Origin: Flavobacteriaceae bacterium
Lineage (GTDB): Bacteria > Bacteroidota > Bacteroidia > Flavobacteriales > Flavobacteriaceae
Length of the DNA: 64,000 nt
Reading direction: 5' to 3'
NCBI GenBank assembly: GCA_028279515.1
Contig: JANQNQ010000004.1
Coordinates: 310,001 to 374,000, forward strand
Shown here: positions 46,428-52,514 of the stretch, piece by piece
How the letters are laid out: every line of letters starts with the position of its first letter
Numbering within the stretch: position 1 is the first letter of the stretch
Program-made: the position numbers and the translations under genes
Notes under the pieces: generated by a model
Told to the model about the DNA's origin: nothing
Database searches by the model: none
What the model saw: only the letters and a program-made list of their open reading frames with translations

Positions 46428-47054
46428 GTGGTTGCTACCAAAGCACTTCAATTTACATACGATAAAGACAATAGGTTCTCATTTCCAGACATAAGCTTGT
46501 CTGAAGGTGAGAACCTACTTATTTTAGGCCCTTCTGGAATAGGAAAGACCACATTACTGCATCTTTTGGGAGGACTGCTGCGACCAGAGAATGGAAGTAT
46601 CTTAATAGATGAAACCGACTTGTCTTTACTTTCAGACAAAGCGTTGGATGCGTTTAGGGGAAGGCATATCGGAGTAGTGTTTCAGCGTCCTCACTTTGTT
46701 TCGTCCTTGACCGTCAAGGAGAATTTACTGTTGGCTCAATATCTTTCTAAAACTGCACAAAATACGAATGAATTATTGTCACTTCTTGACCATTTAGCAA
46801 TTAAGAATAAGGCGAATCAAAAGGCCCATCGATTGAGTGAAGGTCAAAAGCAGCGAGCCAGTATTGCCATGGCCTTGGTAAACAATCCAAAATTACTTTT
46901 GGCCGACGAACCCACATCGAGCCTTGACGATCAAAATTGTGAGCGAGTTATACAATTGCTCAAACAACAGGCAGAAACACTAAAGGCGAACCTCATTGTA
47001 ATCACACATGACCATCGATTAAAGTCTCACTTTTCAAAATCGATTCAGTTATGA
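46428..47054 (+). CDS. ABC transporter ATP-binding protein (MacB/LolD-like, next to FtsX permease)
   Basis: This 208-aa cytosolic ATPase starts at GTG (46428). Motifs are Walker A GPSGIGKTTLLHLLGG, signature RLSEGQKQRASIAMAL (SEGQ for the usual SGGQ), Walker B LLLADEPTSSLDD, and a His switch in VITHDH. It overlaps the permease gene by 4 nt (ATGA) and certainly works with it. The location opposite a ZnuD-like receptor operon suggests a role in metal homeostasis, by analogy with the Vibrio Zrg zinc system that also uses this ATPase/FtsX type. This is inference. Confidence 0.87.
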   Translation: MVATKALQFTYDKDNRFSFPDISLSEGENLLILGPSGIGKTTLLHLLGGLLRPENGSILIDETDLSLLSDKALDAFRGRHIGVVFQRPHFVSSLTVKENLLLAQYLSKTAQNTNELLSLLDHLAIKNKANQKAHRLSEGQKQRASIAMALVNNPKLLLADEPTSSLDDQNCERVIQLLKQQAETLKANLIVITHDHRLKSHFSKSIQL

Positions 47055-48232
47055 ACTTACTAAAGTTGAGCCTTAAAAATCTATTGTCGAAACCTCTTAG
47101 TACGTTACTAAGCGTTCTTTTATTGGTATTGAGTGTTGCGCTAATTTCACTGATGCTTCAGGTAAACAAGCAGCTTGGTGAAACAATGGAGAACAACATA
47201 AACGGTATTGATATGGTGGTAGGAGCGAAGGGAAGTCCGATGCAATTGGTGCTGTCCTCTGTGCTTCATGCTGATGTTCCTACCGGAAACATTAAGCTTT
47301 GGGAAACCAAGGAATTGGAGACCAATCATTTTGTGCGACAGCTGATTCCGCTTTCCTATGGAGATAACTACAAGGGGTATCGAATTTTGGGAACTATACA
47401 CGATTATGTTGAGTTATATAAAGGAACTATTCAAAACGGAAGTCTTTGGGAGGAAGCATTTGAAGTCACCCTGGGAGCCGCCGTGGCAGAAAATCTTCAG
47501 CTGAAAATAGGAGATACATTTGAAGGGTCTCACGGACTTGTGGCCGAAGCGATAGAAACGCACCACCATGATTTTAAGGTGGTTGGGATTTTGGCACCGA
47601 CTAATTCAGTTTTGGACCAATTGATACTTACCAATAAAGAAAGTGTTTGGGAAGTACATGAGGAGGAAGGAAAGGAAGTAGCGAATGCCGATAAAGAAAT
47701 TACGGCCCTATTGGTAACATTTAGAAACCCGATGGGAATGGTACAATTGCCCAGAATGGTCAATCAAAACACTTCAATGCAGGCAGCAATTCCAAGGTAT
47801 GAGGTTGAACGCCTTAATAAGTTGATGGGATTTGGGACAAAGACCATGTTATATGTGGCCATTTTGATCATGTTGATCTCAGGTGTTAGTATTTTTATAA
47901 GTTTGTATAAAGCCATTTCGGAAAGAAAGTACGAATTGGCCTTGATGCGAAATTATGGAGCGTCAAGAGCACAATTGCTTTGGACAGCGATTTTAGAAGG
48001 ACTGATCGTAACGATCATCGGTTTTTTCTTCGGAATCCTACTAAGTCGCATCGGAATTTCTATAGTTTCCTCCGTCATGGGAGATACCTATAACTATCAA
48101 TTGAATGCTTTTTCATTTATCAAAGAGGAAGGCTTCCTTTTTGTTGTGATCGTCTTAATGGGTATATTGGCGGCTTTACTTGCAGCAGTAAGAATTTTTA
48201 AAATGGACATTTCGAAAGTGCTGGCGGAATAA
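47051..48232 (+). CDS. FtsX-type ABC transporter permease (Zrg-like family)
   Basis: This 393-aa inner-membrane protein has the MacB/FtsX layout: one N-terminal helix (LLSVLLLVLSVALISLML, ~18-35), a large periplasmic domain (~40-270), and three C-terminal helices. NGIDMVVGAKGSPMQLVLSSVLHADVPTGNI (within residues 50-80) is a motif I associate with the FtsX-like permeases of zinc-regulated transporter clusters such as Vibrio ZrgE. The periplasmic domain contains ETHHHDFKVV, a possible metal site. It overlaps the ATPase gene. It ends facing the TonB-receptor operon, with a terminator in between. Confidence 0.85.
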   Translation: MNLLKLSLKNLLSKPLSTLLSVLLLVLSVALISLMLQVNKQLGETMENNINGIDMVVGAKGSPMQLVLSSVLHADVPTGNIKLWETKELETNHFVRQLIPLSYGDNYKGYRILGTIHDYVELYKGTIQNGSLWEEAFEVTLGAAVAENLQLKIGDTFEGSHGLVAEAIETHHHDFKVVGILAPTNSVLDQLILTNKESVWEVHEEEGKEVANADKEITALLVTFRNPMGMVQLPRMVNQNTSMQAAIPRYEVERLNKLMGFGTKTMLYVAILIMLISGVSIFISLYKAISERKYELALMRNYGASRAQLLWTAILEGLIVTIIGFFFGILLSRIGISIVSSVMGDTYNYQLNAFSFIKEEGFLFVVIVLMGILAALLAAVRIFKMDISKVLAE

Positions 48233-48245
48233 AATAGTGACAAAA

Positions 48246-48274
48246 AAAGAAGGACAGCCTCCGCTGCCCTTCCA
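48246..48274 (-). terminator. Terminator of the metal-uptake operon
   Basis: On the minus strand, GAAGGGCAGC-ggag-GCTGTCCTTC is followed by a T run. One pair is G-U in the minus-strand RNA but A-C in the plus-strand RNA, so it should work better for the minus operon. Confidence 0.82.
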
Positions 48275-48289
48275 CATTAACCAAAAACT
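48275..48289 (-). repeat. Shared 3'-UTR element, degenerate copy 3
   Basis: The minus strand carries TTTTTGGTTAAT between the lipoprotein stop and its terminator. This is the TTTTTGGTT core of the element seen after the two paralogous secreted-protein genes, with the second repeat lost. Confidence 0.45.
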
Positions 48290-48315
48290 AGTAAGTAATT
48301 GCTTGCAAACCTCAA

Positions 48316-48879
48316 CTAGTTTACTGTCACAGTAAATGTTTCTGTTATATCAGTTTCACCGCCAGCATTCGTGATGTCTCCTTCTGAAACACCTGCTGCA
48401 GTTTTATTTGGCTGATGACGTAAAGTAACCATCACTGTACCTGCTCCGGCTGCACCAGTAGTAAGTGTAAATGCTAATCCAATTGGGTTACCATTGCCGT
48501 CTTGATCAGTATAAGCTGTACCAGTCACACTTCCTGTAGTCGAAAAGAAGAACTGATGCTCATCATCTTCTTCCTGTACTTCTGCTGTGATGTCCTCTGC
48601 TGGAGTTTCTGTTTCATTTAGAAGTTCAATACTACCCGTATAGGTTGTATTAGCTGCCAAAGGTCCAGAAATGTTAATTACAGGAGCGTTAGGGCCATCA
48701 CCATCTAGATCTTGTGTTTGCAACGTAACCACAGCACCTGCTGCCGGAGTGAGTGTAAGTGTCATTGTAGTGATCACCTCTTCTTCATTCACTGGCGTAG
48801 GGTTGTCATCGTCAGATGAACACGACGTAAACACTGCGGCACCTACAAAAAATAAAGCTATTAATTTGATTGTTTTCAT
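48316..48879 (-). CDS. Lipoprotein partner of the TonB receptor ('type 1 periplasmic binding fold' label)
   Basis: This 187-aa protein has a lipoprotein signal (LIALFFVGAAVFTSC; lipid Cys20) and then an acidic linker SSDDDNPTPVNEEE. The body is beta-rich (MTLTLTPAAGAVVTLQTQDLDGDGPNAP...VTLRHQPNKTAAGVSEGDITNAGGETDITETF). Bacteroidota homologues carry the label 'type 1 periplasmic binding fold superfamily protein' and sit beside TonB receptors. EEDDEHQFFF offers acidic and His residues that might bind metal. It is the last gene of the operon, 29 nt after the receptor stop. I infer that it helps capture or pass on the ligand. Confidence 0.82.
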   Translation of the reverse strand: MKTIKLIALFFVGAAVFTSCSSDDDNPTPVNEEEVITTMTLTLTPAAGAVVTLQTQDLDGDGPNAPVINISGPLAANTTYTGSIELLNETETPAEDITAEVQEEDDEHQFFFSTTGSVTGTAYTDQDGNGNPIGLAFTLTTGAAGAGTVMVTLRHQPNKTAAGVSEGDITNAGGETDITETFTVTVN

Positions 48880-48908
48880 GATAAAAAAATTGATTATTAA
48901 TAAAAATG

Positions 48909-51314
48909 TTAGTAACTAATTCGTAATCTTAATAAGATGTTTCTGCCCAGATCATCAGCGAAATAGCGCTGTCTGTTCAAATAATCTCTGTATCGTTGAT
49001 TTAAAATGTTGTTAAAGCTAAGTCCTACACCTGCCATACTTTTCTTTTGAAAAAGCGGAAATTCAATATCCATTGTACTATTTAAAACGTGATAACCATC
49101 TGGAGCTGTATTAATGGCCAATAGCACCTCTTGGTTTTGCACCGGAGAGAACACCATGATATCATCTGGAGTCTCATTTTGTCGAAGGTGATATTGGCTT
49201 TCCAATGTAAAGTTGAAACCTAGCCATTTTTCATTTGTATAACTGATTTGATTTGAAAAAGATGTAGCGGGAATGTTGATCAATGGCCTGTCATTAGAAA
49301 GGTCTCTTCCTTTCACCATTGAAAATCCATGGTCTGAACTGAAATTTTCTGACCAGTTAGAGGTAACCCTAGTATCAATACCTAACAACCTAGCATCTGT
49401 CTGAATATACTCCCACACTGGGAATGCCCCACGAATCGTAAATTCAACGCCAGTAGGTTCTAAGAGAATGAAATCATTAACATGATTGAAATAAGGCGCG
49501 ATCTCCCAAGACCATTGCGTTCCTCGTCCTTGTAATGAGGCAGACAATTTATGTGAAACCTCTTTATCAATGCGAAGGTCGCCAAGCTCAATACGAGCAG
49601 CAGAATGGTGCAAACCATCACTAAACAGTTCAGATGGATTTGGTGTACGGCTTGAGAGTGCGTAATTGAATCGAAGTTCAGTATCATTTTCCCATAAATA
49701 CTGAGCTCCGATAGTTGCTGATATATTGTGATAATCGAATTTGGGATTCGTTAATAATTGTGTGCCGAGGTCTTCAACAATGATGTCTGCGAAATCTTGG
49801 TCATACCCTCTTTCAATCCATCTACTGGTTCGATAGAATTTTTTGGCATCGATGGTATTAAAGTCATACCGAACGCCGGCATCTAACAGAAGATTGTCAG
49901 TAACATAGTAGTTTCCGGACAAATAGGCACCAACATCAAGCTTTTCATAATCAGGGATCAAACGCCGAACCCCAGTGTCAGGATTGGCAAAATTTTCTTG
50001 ATATCTGAAAAGCAAACCAGCATTGAGTTTGTAATTGGGATTGGCGTCCACTACAAAGTCAGAGGTTAGTGTATGCGTTGTAAGCTCTAGATCAAGAGCG
50101 GGTTTGTCACGGTCACTACCTACGCGTATGTCAAACTCGAACCTACGGTTTAGTTGAAAATCATATTGTATATCTAACTTTCCGAGCTCTTCAAAACGCT
50201 TGAAGATCTTTACTTTGCCTAAGTGATGACGTATGTTTTGGGAAGGTCGATCAATGTCATAAGTGAAATCCTCAATAAATAGTGGTATATCACTGTTGAT
50301 TGCACGAATTAGGTCATCAACGTTTCCAAGATGCGATGCTCTCAGCACGCCAATATCTGACTCGATGAATGAATAGTAGGCTTCAAATCCGTAAACAAAT
50401 TTATTGAGTCCCAATCGGGCAGTAAAAGCCTTTTCCTCGTTTCCTGTATTCGATAAAATGTAGTCCTGAGTTTCAAAATCACCAAAACGCTTGTAGGTGC
50501 CTCCGATTTCAGCATAGAACCCTGACTTTGTGCTTTTGACCAAATCAGAACTGATGCTGCCCCCACGTCCATTGCTTCCTAAGGTGAGGTTGGTTCTCCC
50601 AAATAAAGTGTCCTTAGCTGGTATGCGAGAAGATTCGGCTACGATAACCCCGCCAATGGCGTCTCCGCCATATTTGAGTGCTGCAGCACCCTTAACAACA
50701 GTTATTGATCCAAAAGCATTGATATCTACATTTGGGGCGTGTTCGTCACCCCATTCCATATCTTGCATTCGAACCCCATTGTTTAGCATGAGTACTCGAC
50801 TTCCTCTTAATCCTTGAATTACAGGTTTTACAATAGTATTTCCCGTGTTCAATGAAGATACGCCCAAAATACTTTTTAAAGCATCTCCTAATGTTTGCGA
50901 CCCGTAACGTTGTATTATATCTGATGTAAGCGTTTCTTCTTGAGAAGATGTAGTTTTTTTTGGTTTTCCGGATGCGTTGACGGTGGCTGCCTCTAATTCT
51001 TCCACATGGTGTTCAAGTTTTACCTCAACGGTGGTCGGGTTATTATGGATCCGGACTTGCTGGAATCTGGTTTTGCAGTTGTCATGGGATACTTCCAACT
51101 CTATTATTCCTTTGCACAGATTTTTAATTACCAATAAACCATCACCATCAGTTGTATAGGTAGCGTCCTTTCCGAAGATACGTACTGACGAATCGGGTAA
51201 AGGAGCTCCGTTGTGGAAATCAACCACATTAACGATGAGTTGCGTTTGGCATTCCTGGGCTATGGAATAATATACTGTCAAAACAGATACAAGCAAAAAT
51301 GAGAATAATTTCAT
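48909..51314 (-). CDS. TonB-dependent outer-membrane receptor, ZnuD-like
   Basis: This 801-aa receptor has a signal peptide (FLLVSVLTVYYSIA|QEC). A carboxypeptidase-regulatory-like domain (~20-100) and a plug (TLGDALKSILGVSSLNTGNTI...GSITVVKGAAALKYGGDAIGG; ~130-235) come before a 22-stranded barrel that ends LLRLRISY. GVRMQDMEWGDEHAPNVD in the plug and SELFSDGLHHSAARIELGDL in the barrel resemble the His/Asp-bearing segments of the ZnuD zinc receptor family. I therefore infer zinc or another divalent metal as ligand; other metal complexes are possible. It is flanked in one operon by a lipoprotein and a small HCxxC protein. A 7-bp inverted repeat covers its start codon. Confidence 0.9.
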   Translation of the reverse strand: MKLFSFLLVSVLTVYYSIAQECQTQLIVNVVDFHNGAPLPDSSVRIFGKDATYTTDGDGLLVIKNLCKGIIELEVSHDNCKTRFQQVRIHNNPTTVEVKLEHHVEELEAATVNASGKPKKTTSSQEETLTSDIIQRYGSQTLGDALKSILGVSSLNTGNTIVKPVIQGLRGSRVLMLNNGVRMQDMEWGDEHAPNVDINAFGSITVVKGAAALKYGGDAIGGVIVAESSRIPAKDTLFGRTNLTLGSNGRGGSISSDLVKSTKSGFYAEIGGTYKRFGDFETQDYILSNTGNEEKAFTARLGLNKFVYGFEAYYSFIESDIGVLRASHLGNVDDLIRAINSDIPLFIEDFTYDIDRPSQNIRHHLGKVKIFKRFEELGKLDIQYDFQLNRRFEFDIRVGSDRDKPALDLELTTHTLTSDFVVDANPNYKLNAGLLFRYQENFANPDTGVRRLIPDYEKLDVGAYLSGNYYVTDNLLLDAGVRYDFNTIDAKKFYRTSRWIERGYDQDFADIIVEDLGTQLLTNPKFDYHNISATIGAQYLWENDTELRFNYALSSRTPNPSELFSDGLHHSAARIELGDLRIDKEVSHKLSASLQGRGTQWSWEIAPYFNHVNDFILLEPTGVEFTIRGAFPVWEYIQTDARLLGIDTRVTSNWSENFSSDHGFSMVKGRDLSNDRPLINIPATSFSNQISYTNEKWLGFNFTLESQYHLRQNETPDDIMVFSPVQNQEVLLAINTAPDGYHVLNSTMDIEFPLFQKKSMAGVGLSFNNILNQRYRDYLNRQRYFADDLGRNILLRLRISY

Positions 51315-51327
51315 TTTTATAATGAAA
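51309..51327. promoter_or_regulatory. Inverted repeat over the TonB receptor start codon
   Basis: TTTCATT-tttat-AATGAAA is a perfect 7-bp inverted repeat that includes the receptor ATG (51314-51312, minus). It could bind a regulator or hide the start in RNA. AT-rich repeats of this size do occur by chance. Confidence 0.3.
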
Positions 51328-51399
51328 ATTGAGTATGCGTGAATAATTTTCCGTGTTTGTTACAAGGAAAAGTTACAGGTCAAAATAGAGTGTCGATTC

Positions 51400-51711
51400 T
51401 TAGGAAATCGATGGAGGAGGCCTGTTGTAAAGAGAGTAAATGGTGAAGTCAGATATAGACGAGCTGTCGTAATCTGCATAGTTTGAAGAAATCACCGGAA
51501 TGTCAATGGCTGGAGAAGGAACTGCAATCGTGGTTGCAGTATCCGATGGCACGACCGAATCAACGACCGCCCATTCGCAAACATCACAGTGCTCTACGGA
51601 TGTATCGTCTTCCAAAAGATGCAAGTAACCATGCCCAGCCATTGTCTTTATTCCTAAAAACAACAGTAGCAATAGCATTGGTAAAGTCTGTTTTCTCTGC
51701 ATCATTTTCAA
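51400..51711 (-). CDS. Small secreted HCxxC protein, putative metal-binding
   Basis: This 103-aa protein has a signal peptide (MLLLLLFLGIKTMA|GHG). The mature part starts GHGYLHLLEDDTSVEHCDVCEWAVVDSV, giving several His and an H-C-x-x-C site that looks able to bind a metal. The rest is Ser/Pro/Asp-rich and low in complexity, ending NRPPPSIS. Small proteins with HCDVCEWA upstream of TonB receptors are familiar from Flavobacteriaceae, though not characterised; a distant likeness to DUF2946 is possible. It lies 15 nt after the DUF6787 stop and 85 nt before the receptor. Confidence 0.75.
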   Translation of the reverse strand: MKMMQRKQTLPMLLLLLFLGIKTMAGHGYLHLLEDDTSVEHCDVCEWAVVDSVVPSDTATTIAVPSPAIDIPVISSNYADYDSSSISDFTIYSLYNRPPPSIS

Positions 51712-51726
51712 ACGATAGAGGCAAAT

Positions 51727-52029
51727 CTAGGAAAATAAAAATCCCAGACCAATTCTTTTAAGCATTTTCTTCTCAAAATTCCAGAAGAAGGTAAACTGCC
51801 CAAAAAGCCAACCAAAGAAAACTAATAATACTTGATAAATAGGGAAAATTAACAAAATTCTAACAGGCCAATAGATCCACCCATTGGTGTTTTCTTGCGT
51901 CATTCCTATCCACTCGGTCACAGGTCCGGCTACCTTAGCAGATACAGATCCCGTGATGGCAAAAACGATAAAGATTATGACAATCTGAAAGTTAGAGGTA
52001 ATTCCCCAGCGTGCTTTTAGTTTTTCCAT
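51727..52029 (-). CDS. DUF6787-like small membrane protein
   Basis: This protein is about 100 aa from the ATG at 52029 (MEKLKARWGITSNFQIVIIFIVFAITGS); an ATG 21 nt upstream was not used. It has two transmembrane helices (~12-35 and ~63-85) and ends FGWLFGQFTFFWNFEKKMLKR, features I associate with the Flavobacteriaceae family DUF6787. The function is unknown. It follows the DUF6146 lipoprotein by 32 nt and precedes the HCxxC gene by 15 nt. Confidence 0.8.
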   Translation of the reverse strand: MEKLKARWGITSNFQIVIIFIVFAITGSVSAKVAGPVTEWIGMTQENTNGWIYWPVRILLIFPIYQVLLVFFGWLFGQFTFFWNFEKKMLKRIGLGFLFS

Positions 52030-52061
52030 GGTTCTAATTTCCGCTGGCAAATATAAGTCGA

Positions 52062-52514
52062 TCAGATTCTAGGAACAAATGGTCCAAGTCGTTGATTGTA
52101 CTTCCGTTGAAAATAAACGAAGTAATTATATAGTTTGTAGTTTACTTCGTATCCATAATCCACATTGGGGTCATAGTCGATTGTCAACAGATAGAGGTCT
52201 GGGTTGTACAATTGGGGTTGCATCACTCGGTTGTTCCAGTTGATGACAAGCACTCGATTTCTATGTTCCAAAAAACTTTGTGAATAATATCCTTTTGGCT
52301 GGGCAATGGTTTGCAACCAAGCATTGAACCCAGGTTCAATAATAATGATCTGATATTCATCTTCCTCTTCTTCCTCGCTCGCAATACGAACGGTGTCATT
52401 TCCTTTTTGGTCAAACAGCTCCTTCTCAGAATCTTTAACCGCTATGGCTTCCTTAGTCGAAGAACAACTCCAAATAAGAAGCGCTAAAACTGCTATAGAT
52501 AATACGTACTTCAT
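52062..52514 (-). CDS. DUF6146-like lipoprotein
   Basis: This 150-aa lipoprotein has a signal SIAVLALLIWSC with lipid Cys17, then an acidic linker and a compact domain: EYQIIIIEPGFNAWLQTIAQPKGYYSQSFLEHRNRVLVINWNNRVMQP, ending QRKYNQRLGPFVPRI. This matches what I know as DUF6146, commonly paired with DUF6787 in this family. The function is unknown. It is the first gene of the five-gene minus operon that includes the TonB receptor. Confidence 0.82.
   Translation of the reverse strand: MKYVLSIAVLALLIWSCSSTKEAIAVKDSEKELFDQKGNDTVRIASEEEEEDEYQIIIIEPGFNAWLQTIAQPKGYYSQSFLEHRNRVLVINWNNRVMQPQLYNPDLYLLTIDYDPNVDYGYEVNYKLYNYFVYFQRKYNQRLGPFVPRI

What the first reader, a model, noticed from the sequence alone, without database searches (positions are those of the whole stretch)
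46428..52514. Candidate metal (probably zinc) acquisition locus: ZnuD-like receptor, lipoprotein, HCxxC protein and a facing Zrg-like ABC transporter
Seen: a minus operon (DUF6146, DUF6787, small exported HCxxC protein, TonB receptor, lipoprotein) faces a plus-strand ATPase/FtsX-permease pair across a terminator. The receptor has His/Asp segments like ZnuD, the HCxxC protein has a His-rich mature start, and the permease has VVGAKGSP...DVPTGNI and a HHH run. Known: ZnuD is a zinc TonB receptor, and Vibrio Zrg uses an ATPase plus FtsX-type permease for zinc. Inferred: together these may form a complete outer-to-inner-membrane metal system in Flavobacteriaceae. To my knowledge it has not been described as one.
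Basis: partly seen in the sequence, partly recalled or inferred. Interest (0 to 1): 0.68.

Follow-up and report, generated by a model that had tools for sequence, protein, structure and literature searches.

The report
Metal-uptake operon with ribosome-stalling leader
The genes are a metal-uptake receptor and its partner lipoprotein, headed by a small gene that looks like a metal-sensing ribosome-stalling switch of a kind shown so far only for copper; here the gene context points to zinc.

Summary
The conserved unit is not the whole locus but three genes: small 'HCxxC' ORF, TonB receptor, lipoprotein. Of 80 named Flavobacteriaceae receptor loci, 77 have the lipoprotein, 78 a leader ORF directly upstream, and none a homologue of the FtsX permease.

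The HCxxC ORF is most likely not a metal-carrying effector. It is a CruR-like regulatory leader: an exported nascent chain with a Cys pair, then 44-51 residues, then R/K-[A,G,P]-P-P about three residues before the stop. The position-2 residues seen are those that best keep ribosome arrest in published mutagenesis. The motif occurs in 1 of 100 comparable ORFs of the window.

The receptor is ZnuD/OprC-like in sequence and predicted fold. The ATPase/permease belongs to a zinc (Zrg-like) family usually found with a CFFC protein, Zur, COG0523 GTPases and FolE. The host's second copy (contig C9) has a perfect Zur box that I derived; the window copy lacks Zur box, CFFC gene and His-rich loop. One other genus has the same tail-to-tail arrangement, and four relative loci form one leader-receptor-ABC operon, two with Zur boxes at the leader.

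Zinc is likelier than copper. Arrest and the metal are untested.

The parts
46428..47054 (+). ABC ATPase, 208 aa, intact Walker A/B, signature and H-loop; Zrg-like zinc-family paralogue
47051..48232 (+). FtsX/MacB-type permease, 393 aa; His-poorest of 39 family members compared (at most 5 His in 60 aa, against 20 in the paralogue on contig C9); no CFFC partner gene follows
48248..48273 (-). terminator-like hairpin plus T-run ending the lipoprotein operon
48316..48879 (-). lipoprotein, 187 aa, beta-rich model (pLDDT 91.6); invariant C20, E33, E34, E100, E104, H108, H155, D177; candidate metal-binding partner of the receptor
48909..51314 (-). TonB-dependent receptor, 801 aa, ZnuD/OprC-like; invariant H192 in the plug motif WGxEHAP, H328, H363, H569
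51315..51399 (-). leader-receptor intergenic region, 85 nt, with predicted hairpins (z -3.1 for 51280-51440; about -1 for the intergenic stretch alone)
51577..51588 (-). CDVC codons, proposed metal-sensing Cys pair
   Evidence: sequence
51412..51423 (-). RPPP codons (AGG CCT CCT CCA), proposed ribosome-arrest motif
   Evidence: sequence
51727..52029 (-). DUF6787 small membrane protein, syntenic neighbour, not part of the core module
52062..52514 (-). DUF6146 lipoprotein-like protein, syntenic neighbour, not part of the core module

Best explanation
The minus-strand genes are a metal-ion uptake operon under nascent-chain control. When the metal is scarce, the ribosome translating the leader stalls at its C-terminal RPPP (expected with the third motif codon in the P site and the last Pro in the A site), and this keeps the downstream ZnuD-like receptor and lipoprotein genes expressed. 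When the metal is plentiful it binds the Cys pair of the nascent leader about 50 residues from the peptidyl-transferase centre, arrest is relieved, and receptor expression falls, as shown for CruR and copper in Bordetella pertussis. The receptor takes the metal, most likely zinc, through the outer membrane. The His/Asp/Glu-conserved lipoprotein assists or receives it. The facing ATPase/FtsX permease is an intact-looking paralogue of a Zur-linked zinc transporter that has lost its Zur box, CFFC partner and His-rich loop; it probably works on the same metal in the inner membrane but is not part of the conserved operon. Shown: gene order, motif conservation, family relations, presence and absence of Zur boxes. 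Inferred: arrest, metal sensing, metal identity, transport.
For: Leader: an ORF with [R/K][A/G/P]PP within 8 residues of its end lies directly upstream of the receptor in 77 of 78 loci by ORF picking (the other, L085, has it), against 4 of 241 other small ORFs, themselves leader-like. Position 2 is only G 34, A 25, P 18; all six Arg and all four Pro codons are used, so selection is on the peptide. In ApdP, A132G and A132P keep arrest (0.9 and 2.4 units; wild type 1.9) while most other residues weaken it (PMC12992588). CxxC-to-R spacing is 43-45 in CxxC-bearing RAPP/RGPP leaders and 49-51 in RPPP ones; CruR has 45 (PMC9426467). Leaders are 22% identical pairwise, receptors 51%, lipoproteins 48%. 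The leader heads the operon even where the lipoprotein gene comes second (L033, L037). Zinc: ZnuD is the top hit; leaders of the window's own subtype (RPPP, spacing 51) head four strings with receptor, ABC pair and CFFC, Zur boxes adjoining two of them; receptor and ABC genes are tail to tail also in L137; in L198 the receptor cluster adjoins an ABC-2 transporter and a COG0523 GTPase; permease-bearing genomes carry this receptor more often (24/31 against 16/48, p 2e-4).
Against: No expression, arrest or metal data. The only proven relative, CruR, senses copper, and OprC (copper) is the second fold match. The window leader does not match DUF2946, its spacer is 51 rather than 45, and RPPP is a weaker arrest motif than RAPP/RGPP in ApdA and in E. 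coli. Twelve of 77 leaders have Lys in place of the Arg that is irreplaceable in ApcA, ApdA and ApdP. No Zur box in the window. Receptors without a detected leader: L039, L040, L100.
Confidence: 0.68

Rival explanations
1. Same mechanism, but the metal is copper: leader and receptor are the Bacteroidota counterpart of CruR-BfrG, and the zinc-family ABC genes nearby are incidental.
For: CruR senses copper through CXXC and RAPP; OprC is the second-best fold match; no Zur box at the window-type receptor; the lipoprotein's faint fold hits include copper proteins CrdA and CopC, but at E about 0.09.
Against: ZnuD ranks first in both sequence and fold; conserved receptor and lipoprotein ligands are His/Asp/Glu rather than Met/Cys; leaders of the window subtype head Zur-linked zinc operons.
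Confidence: 0.25
2. One reading: the HCxxC protein is an exported metal-binding protein that works with the receptor, and its C-terminal prolines serve protein function.
For: It has an export signal, an HCxxC and His residues; it is conserved beside the receptor.
Against: Only the Cys, one His and the C-terminal R/K-x-P-P are kept while the rest drifts (22% against 51% identity); the motif sits about three residues from the stop with position-2 residues matching arrest chemistry.
Confidence: 0.12
3. The ABC pair is unrelated in function to the receptor: a LolDE/MacB-like exporter that merely landed here.
For: 0 of 80 receptor loci have it; generic FtsX/MacB domains; LolD is the top NCBIfam hit though far below its cut-off (161.7 against 307.75).
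Against: Its family travels with Zur, COG0523 and FolE; G218 has the same tail-to-tail arrangement, and G319 has the ABC-CFFC-Zur operon at the same msrA-folE flank beside DUF6787/DUF6146.
Confidence: 0.25
4. The receptor imports heme or a siderophore rather than a bare metal.
For: NCBIfam TonB-hemin scores above ZnuD (116.2 against 86.5 bits), both far below cut-off.
Against: Best PDB sequence and fold matches are ZnuD and OprC, ahead of heme receptors PhuR and ChuA.
Confidence: 0.1

Closest known systems
CruR (DUF2946) uORF of Bordetella pertussis, controlling BfrG (PMC9426467)
   Same: Small exported ORF immediately upstream of a TonB receptor; CxxC, a fixed spacer, then an R-x-P-P motif about 3 residues before the stop.
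   Different: Window leader has RPPP and a 51-residue spacer, no DUF2946 match, a short intergenic region (85 against 162 nt), a lipoprotein downstream instead of a PepSY protein, and a likely different metal.
RAPP/RGPP uORFs of TonB-related genes (PMC12992588)
   Same: That survey reports RAPP/RGPP uORFs upstream of TonB receptor genes across Gram-negative bacteria.
   Different: It surveyed RAPP and RGPP only; the RPPP and NK[A/P]PP classes, the operon partners and the zinc context described here are not in the passages I read.
ZnuD, zinc TonB receptor of Neisseria (4RDR, 4RDT)
   Same: Top sequence and fold match; an acidic-His pair in the plug (DHA in ZnuD, EHA here) and an ELF/Y-S/A-x-G-x-H segment.
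   Different: 16% identity, far below the NCBIfam ZnuD cut-off, a CarboxypepD-like N-terminal domain, no Zur box.
ZrgABCDE zinc transporter of Vibrio, Aeromonas, Pseudomonas
   Same: ATPase plus FtsX/MacB-type permease; 28.9% identity to the Aeromonas zrgB product over 90% of the permease.
   Different: No ZrgA and no DUF3299 found; relatives have a CFFC protein instead; the window pair lacks a Zur box.
Zur-regulated TonB receptor and ABC systems of Caulobacter (ZnuK, ZnuGHI; PMC4176598)
   Same: TonB receptor paired with an ABC transporter for zinc.
   Different: ABC-2 type rather than FtsX type; no leader reported for the uptake genes in the passages read.

Membership tests
CruR-type metal-responsive leader | CXXC motif in an exported small ORF | tested here: met
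   EHCDVC after a hydrophobic N-terminus
CruR-type metal-responsive leader | C-terminal RAPP-like arrest motif near the stop | tested here: met
   RPPP, 3 residues before the stop; motif class in 77/77 leaders counted; A-to-P at position 2 retains arrest in ApdP
CruR-type metal-responsive leader | CXXC-to-RAPP spacing of 45, within 1-2 residues | tested here: not met
   51 in the window; 49-51 in RPPP leaders, 43-45 in CxxC-bearing RAPP/RGPP leaders
CruR-type metal-responsive leader | match to Pfam DUF2946 | tested here: not met
   no hit for the window leader; 5 of 78 relatives weak, best 0.014
CruR-type metal-responsive leader | ribosome arrest relieved by metal | not testable with these tools
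   needs toeprinting and reporter assays
ZnuD | NCBIfam ZnuD model above cut-off | tested here: not met
   86.5 bits against 950
ZnuD | fold and plug acidic-His pair | tested here: met
ZnuD | Zur control | tested here: not met
   PWM scores -10 to 1 upstream of the window genes against 20-29 at the sites used to build it
ZrgABCDE | FtsX-type permease homologous to ZrgB | tested here: met
   28.9% over 90%, E 6e-31, to the permease of the Aeromonas zrg operon
ZrgABCDE | ZrgA solute-binding protein (PF10986) | tested here: not met
   no match in the whole host genome
ZrgABCDE | ZrgE/DUF3299 | tested here: inconclusive
   no match, but the control genomes did not ring either
Zur regulon of the host | AATGCAAC-NNN-GTTGCATT upstream | tested here: not met
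   perfect boxes only on contigs C9 and C6
Zinc as substrate | zinc binding or uptake | not testable with these tools
   needs ICP-MS, binding and growth tests

The most novel reading that the evidence does not exclude
Bacteroidota use a large, diverse class of arrest-peptide leaders (RGPP, RAPP, RPPP and lysine-type NK[A/P]PP) to sense zinc on the nascent chain and control outer-membrane zinc receptors, partly in series with Zur. This would be a nascent-chain zinc sensor and the first arrest motif of this kind without arginine.
Probability: 0.4. Interest if true: 0.82.

Novelty: new variant of a known kind. Interest (0 to 1): 0.62.

Why it matters
Metal sensing by a nascent peptide is, in the papers I found, experimentally established only for copper, in Proteobacteria. 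A widespread Bacteroidota version with other motifs and a zinc context would show that translation arrest is a general way to control outer-membrane metal uptake, in a phylum whose ribosomes ignore Shine-Dalgarno sequences (PMC9976891) and so may couple leader and receptor differently. It also turns a set of unannotated 'HCxxC' proteins into testable regulators, and gives a predicted zinc regulon and operator for Flavobacteriaceae.

Tried and rejected
Zur control of the window operon or ABC pair: no box. A fixed receptor-ABC neighbourhood: absent in 80 of 80 loci, so dropped as a general claim. Formal DUF2946 or NCBIfam membership of the leader: rejected; DUF2946 itself passes its cut-off in only 2 of 148 Bacteroidota genomes. 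A conserved Shine-Dalgarno-masking stem-loop as in CutF: intergenic folds are better than shuffled for RPPP and K-type leaders (mean z -1.0, -2.2, -2.8) but not for RAPP/RGPP (0.0, -0.5), with no conserved sequence, so left open. A Bacteroidota TAnnTTTG promoter before the leader: 35/77 against 18/77 in a reversed-string control, only suggestive. Lipoprotein fold search: nothing below E 0.01. CFFC protein against the PDB: nothing. Literature searches for HYC_CC_PP, for zinc-linked CruR leaders and for Zur with COG0523 in Bacteroidetes returned nothing.
Full report
What is there. The seven genes are confirmed at the stated places. On the minus strand run DUF6146, DUF6787, the small HCxxC ORF, an 801-aa TonB receptor and a 187-aa lipoprotein; on the plus strand, facing them, an ABC ATPase and an FtsX/MacB-type permease. 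The strong hairpin with T-run between them, 48248-48273, terminates the minus operon.

What is conserved. I searched receptor and permease in 60 relatives and fetched 80 named Flavobacteriaceae receptor loci. The lipoprotein follows the receptor in 77 of 80, and a small exported ORF precedes it in 78, counting L085, which resolved; of the others L069 starts at the receptor and L100 has none. DUF6146 and DUF6787 are there in 36 and 37. The FtsX permease is within 5 kb in none. In relatives L028-L030 the lipoprotein is followed directly by the 95-aa gene and, in two of them, folE, with no ABC genes between. G218 (L137) has the same tail-to-tail arrangement as the window, with a CFFC gene included. 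G319 (L133) has ATPase, permease, CFFC and Zur at the same msrA-folE flank, next to DUF6787/DUF6146 but without receptor and lipoprotein. So the ABC genes recur at this locus in a few genera but are not part of the general operon.

The HCxxC ORF. Across 78 homologues only PP is strictly invariant, with R or K two residues before it and one His and one Cys in at least 90%. The ending is [R/K][A/G/P]PP, then mostly 2-5 residues. Classes: RGPP 34, RAPP 17, RPPP 15 including the window, NK[A/P]PP 12. This ending is found in 77 of 78 upstream ORFs against 4 of 241 other small ORFs of the same loci, Fisher p 7e-68; those four are themselves leader-like. In the window it is found in 1 of 100 ORFs of 60-160 aa, the leader itself. 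All six Arg and all four Pro codons are used. The ORF is far less conserved than its neighbours: 22% mean pairwise identity against 51% and 48%.

Comparison with known arrest leaders. CruR of Bordetella pertussis is a DUF2946 uORF with CXXC, 45 intervening residues and RAPP near the stop, upstream of TonB receptor BfrG; copper binding relieves the arrest and lets Rho terminate transcription (PMC9426467). The leaders here have 43-45 residues in CxxC-bearing RAPP/RGPP forms and 49-51 in RPPP forms. Systematic mutagenesis of ApdA and ApdP shows position 2 tolerates Gly fully and Pro partly to nearly fully, then Ser and Asp, while Arg is irreplaceable (PMC12992588). The natural set G, A, P matches that order; the 12 Lys leaders do not, and are unexplained. 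The same paper reports RAPP/RGPP uORFs before TonB genes in Gram-negative bacteria generally, so the idea is not new; RPPP and NKxPP forms and their partners go beyond it.

The receptor. ZnuD is the best PDB hit by sequence (E 1.2e-14) and by fold (E 4.9e-34), followed by copper OprC. Invariant residues include H192 in WGxEHAP, aligned with ZnuD's plug DHA, and H328, H363 and H569. The lipoprotein keeps E33, E34, E100, E104, H108, H155 and D177.

The ABC pair and zinc. In 38 loci of the permease family, CFFC is present in 35, MerC in 19, a Fur-family gene in 17, FolE in 17, a COG0523 GTPase in 14 and alkaline phosphatase in 7. A de novo palindrome, AATGCAACNNNGTTGCATT, occurs upstream in 20 of 31 loci. 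Given the company (Zur, COG0523, FolE) I read it as the Zur box. The host has three perfect copies: at the C9 ABC-CFFC-Zur operon, before a COG0523 GTPase and before a lipoprotein gene on C6. The window has none at its ABC pair, leader or DUF6146 (scores -7 to 1 against 20-29). The window permease is also the least His-rich of 39 compared.

Links between the two. Four loci (L141, L158, L159, L161) are strings of RPPP leader, TonB receptor, lipoproteins and ABC-CFFC genes on one strand, and their leaders share the window's RPPP and 51-residue spacer. Zur boxes lie just upstream of the leader in L158 and L161. In L198 the window-type receptor is followed by a second leader, an ABC-2 transporter and a COG0523 gene; in L197 it lies in tandem with the Zur-type receptor. 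Of 31 permease-bearing genomes, 24 have the window-type receptor against 16 of 48 without permease. In Aeromonas a bona fide zrg operon is headed by an ORF with CTLC, 44 residues, then RAPP.

Verdict. The locus is best read as a metal, probably zinc, uptake operon under CruR-like nascent-chain control, with a partly detached zinc-type ABC paralogue beside it. Anatomy and family relations are shown. Arrest, metal sensing and the metal are inferences needing experiment.

Noticed in passing
L053-L055, L068, L073, L076, L081, L092, L124, L129, L130, L132; L137:3892-4212: Leaders ending NK[A/P]PP, with Lys in place of the Arg held to be irreplaceable in known arrest peptides, preceded by Asn.
   Followed up: partly
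L021 (host contig C9 168000-187000); L177:8629 and 11662: Host Zur regulon: perfect AATGCAACNNNGTTGCATT boxes between ATPase-permease-CFFC-Zur and MerC-FolE, before a COG0523 GTPase and before a 263-aa lipoprotein.
   Followed up: yes
L064:7994-8323, L065:8048-8377, L198:11136-11471: A second RxPP leader after the lipoprotein, heading an ABC-2 (DUF3526) transporter operon.
   Followed up: partly
L202:3202-3516: Aeromonas caviae zrg zinc operon headed by a DUF2946-like ORF with CTLC and RAPP; in Vibrio, zrgD (DUF2607) is likewise the first gene of the operon (PMC9817125) and could be a leader too.
   Followed up: partly
L152:14878-15219: RPPP leader of the window's subtype upstream of a DUF5829 gene, close to a Zur-linked ABC-CFFC-Zur operon.
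   Followed up: no
L042-L050 and others, alignment A3: CFFC protein (about 145 aa, invariant CFFCG) follows the FtsX permease in 35 of 38 loci; no Pfam or PDB match.
   Followed up: partly
L045:364-2304: Fusion of a CobW-type GTPase with an ABC ATPase (646 aa) next to ABC-2 and zinc-type ABC genes.
   Followed up: no
window 51315-51399 and L053-L132 intergenic regions: Leader-receptor gaps of RPPP and NKxPP loci are longer (median 70-110 nt) and fold better than shuffled; RAPP/RGPP gaps are about 41 nt and unstructured.
   Followed up: partly
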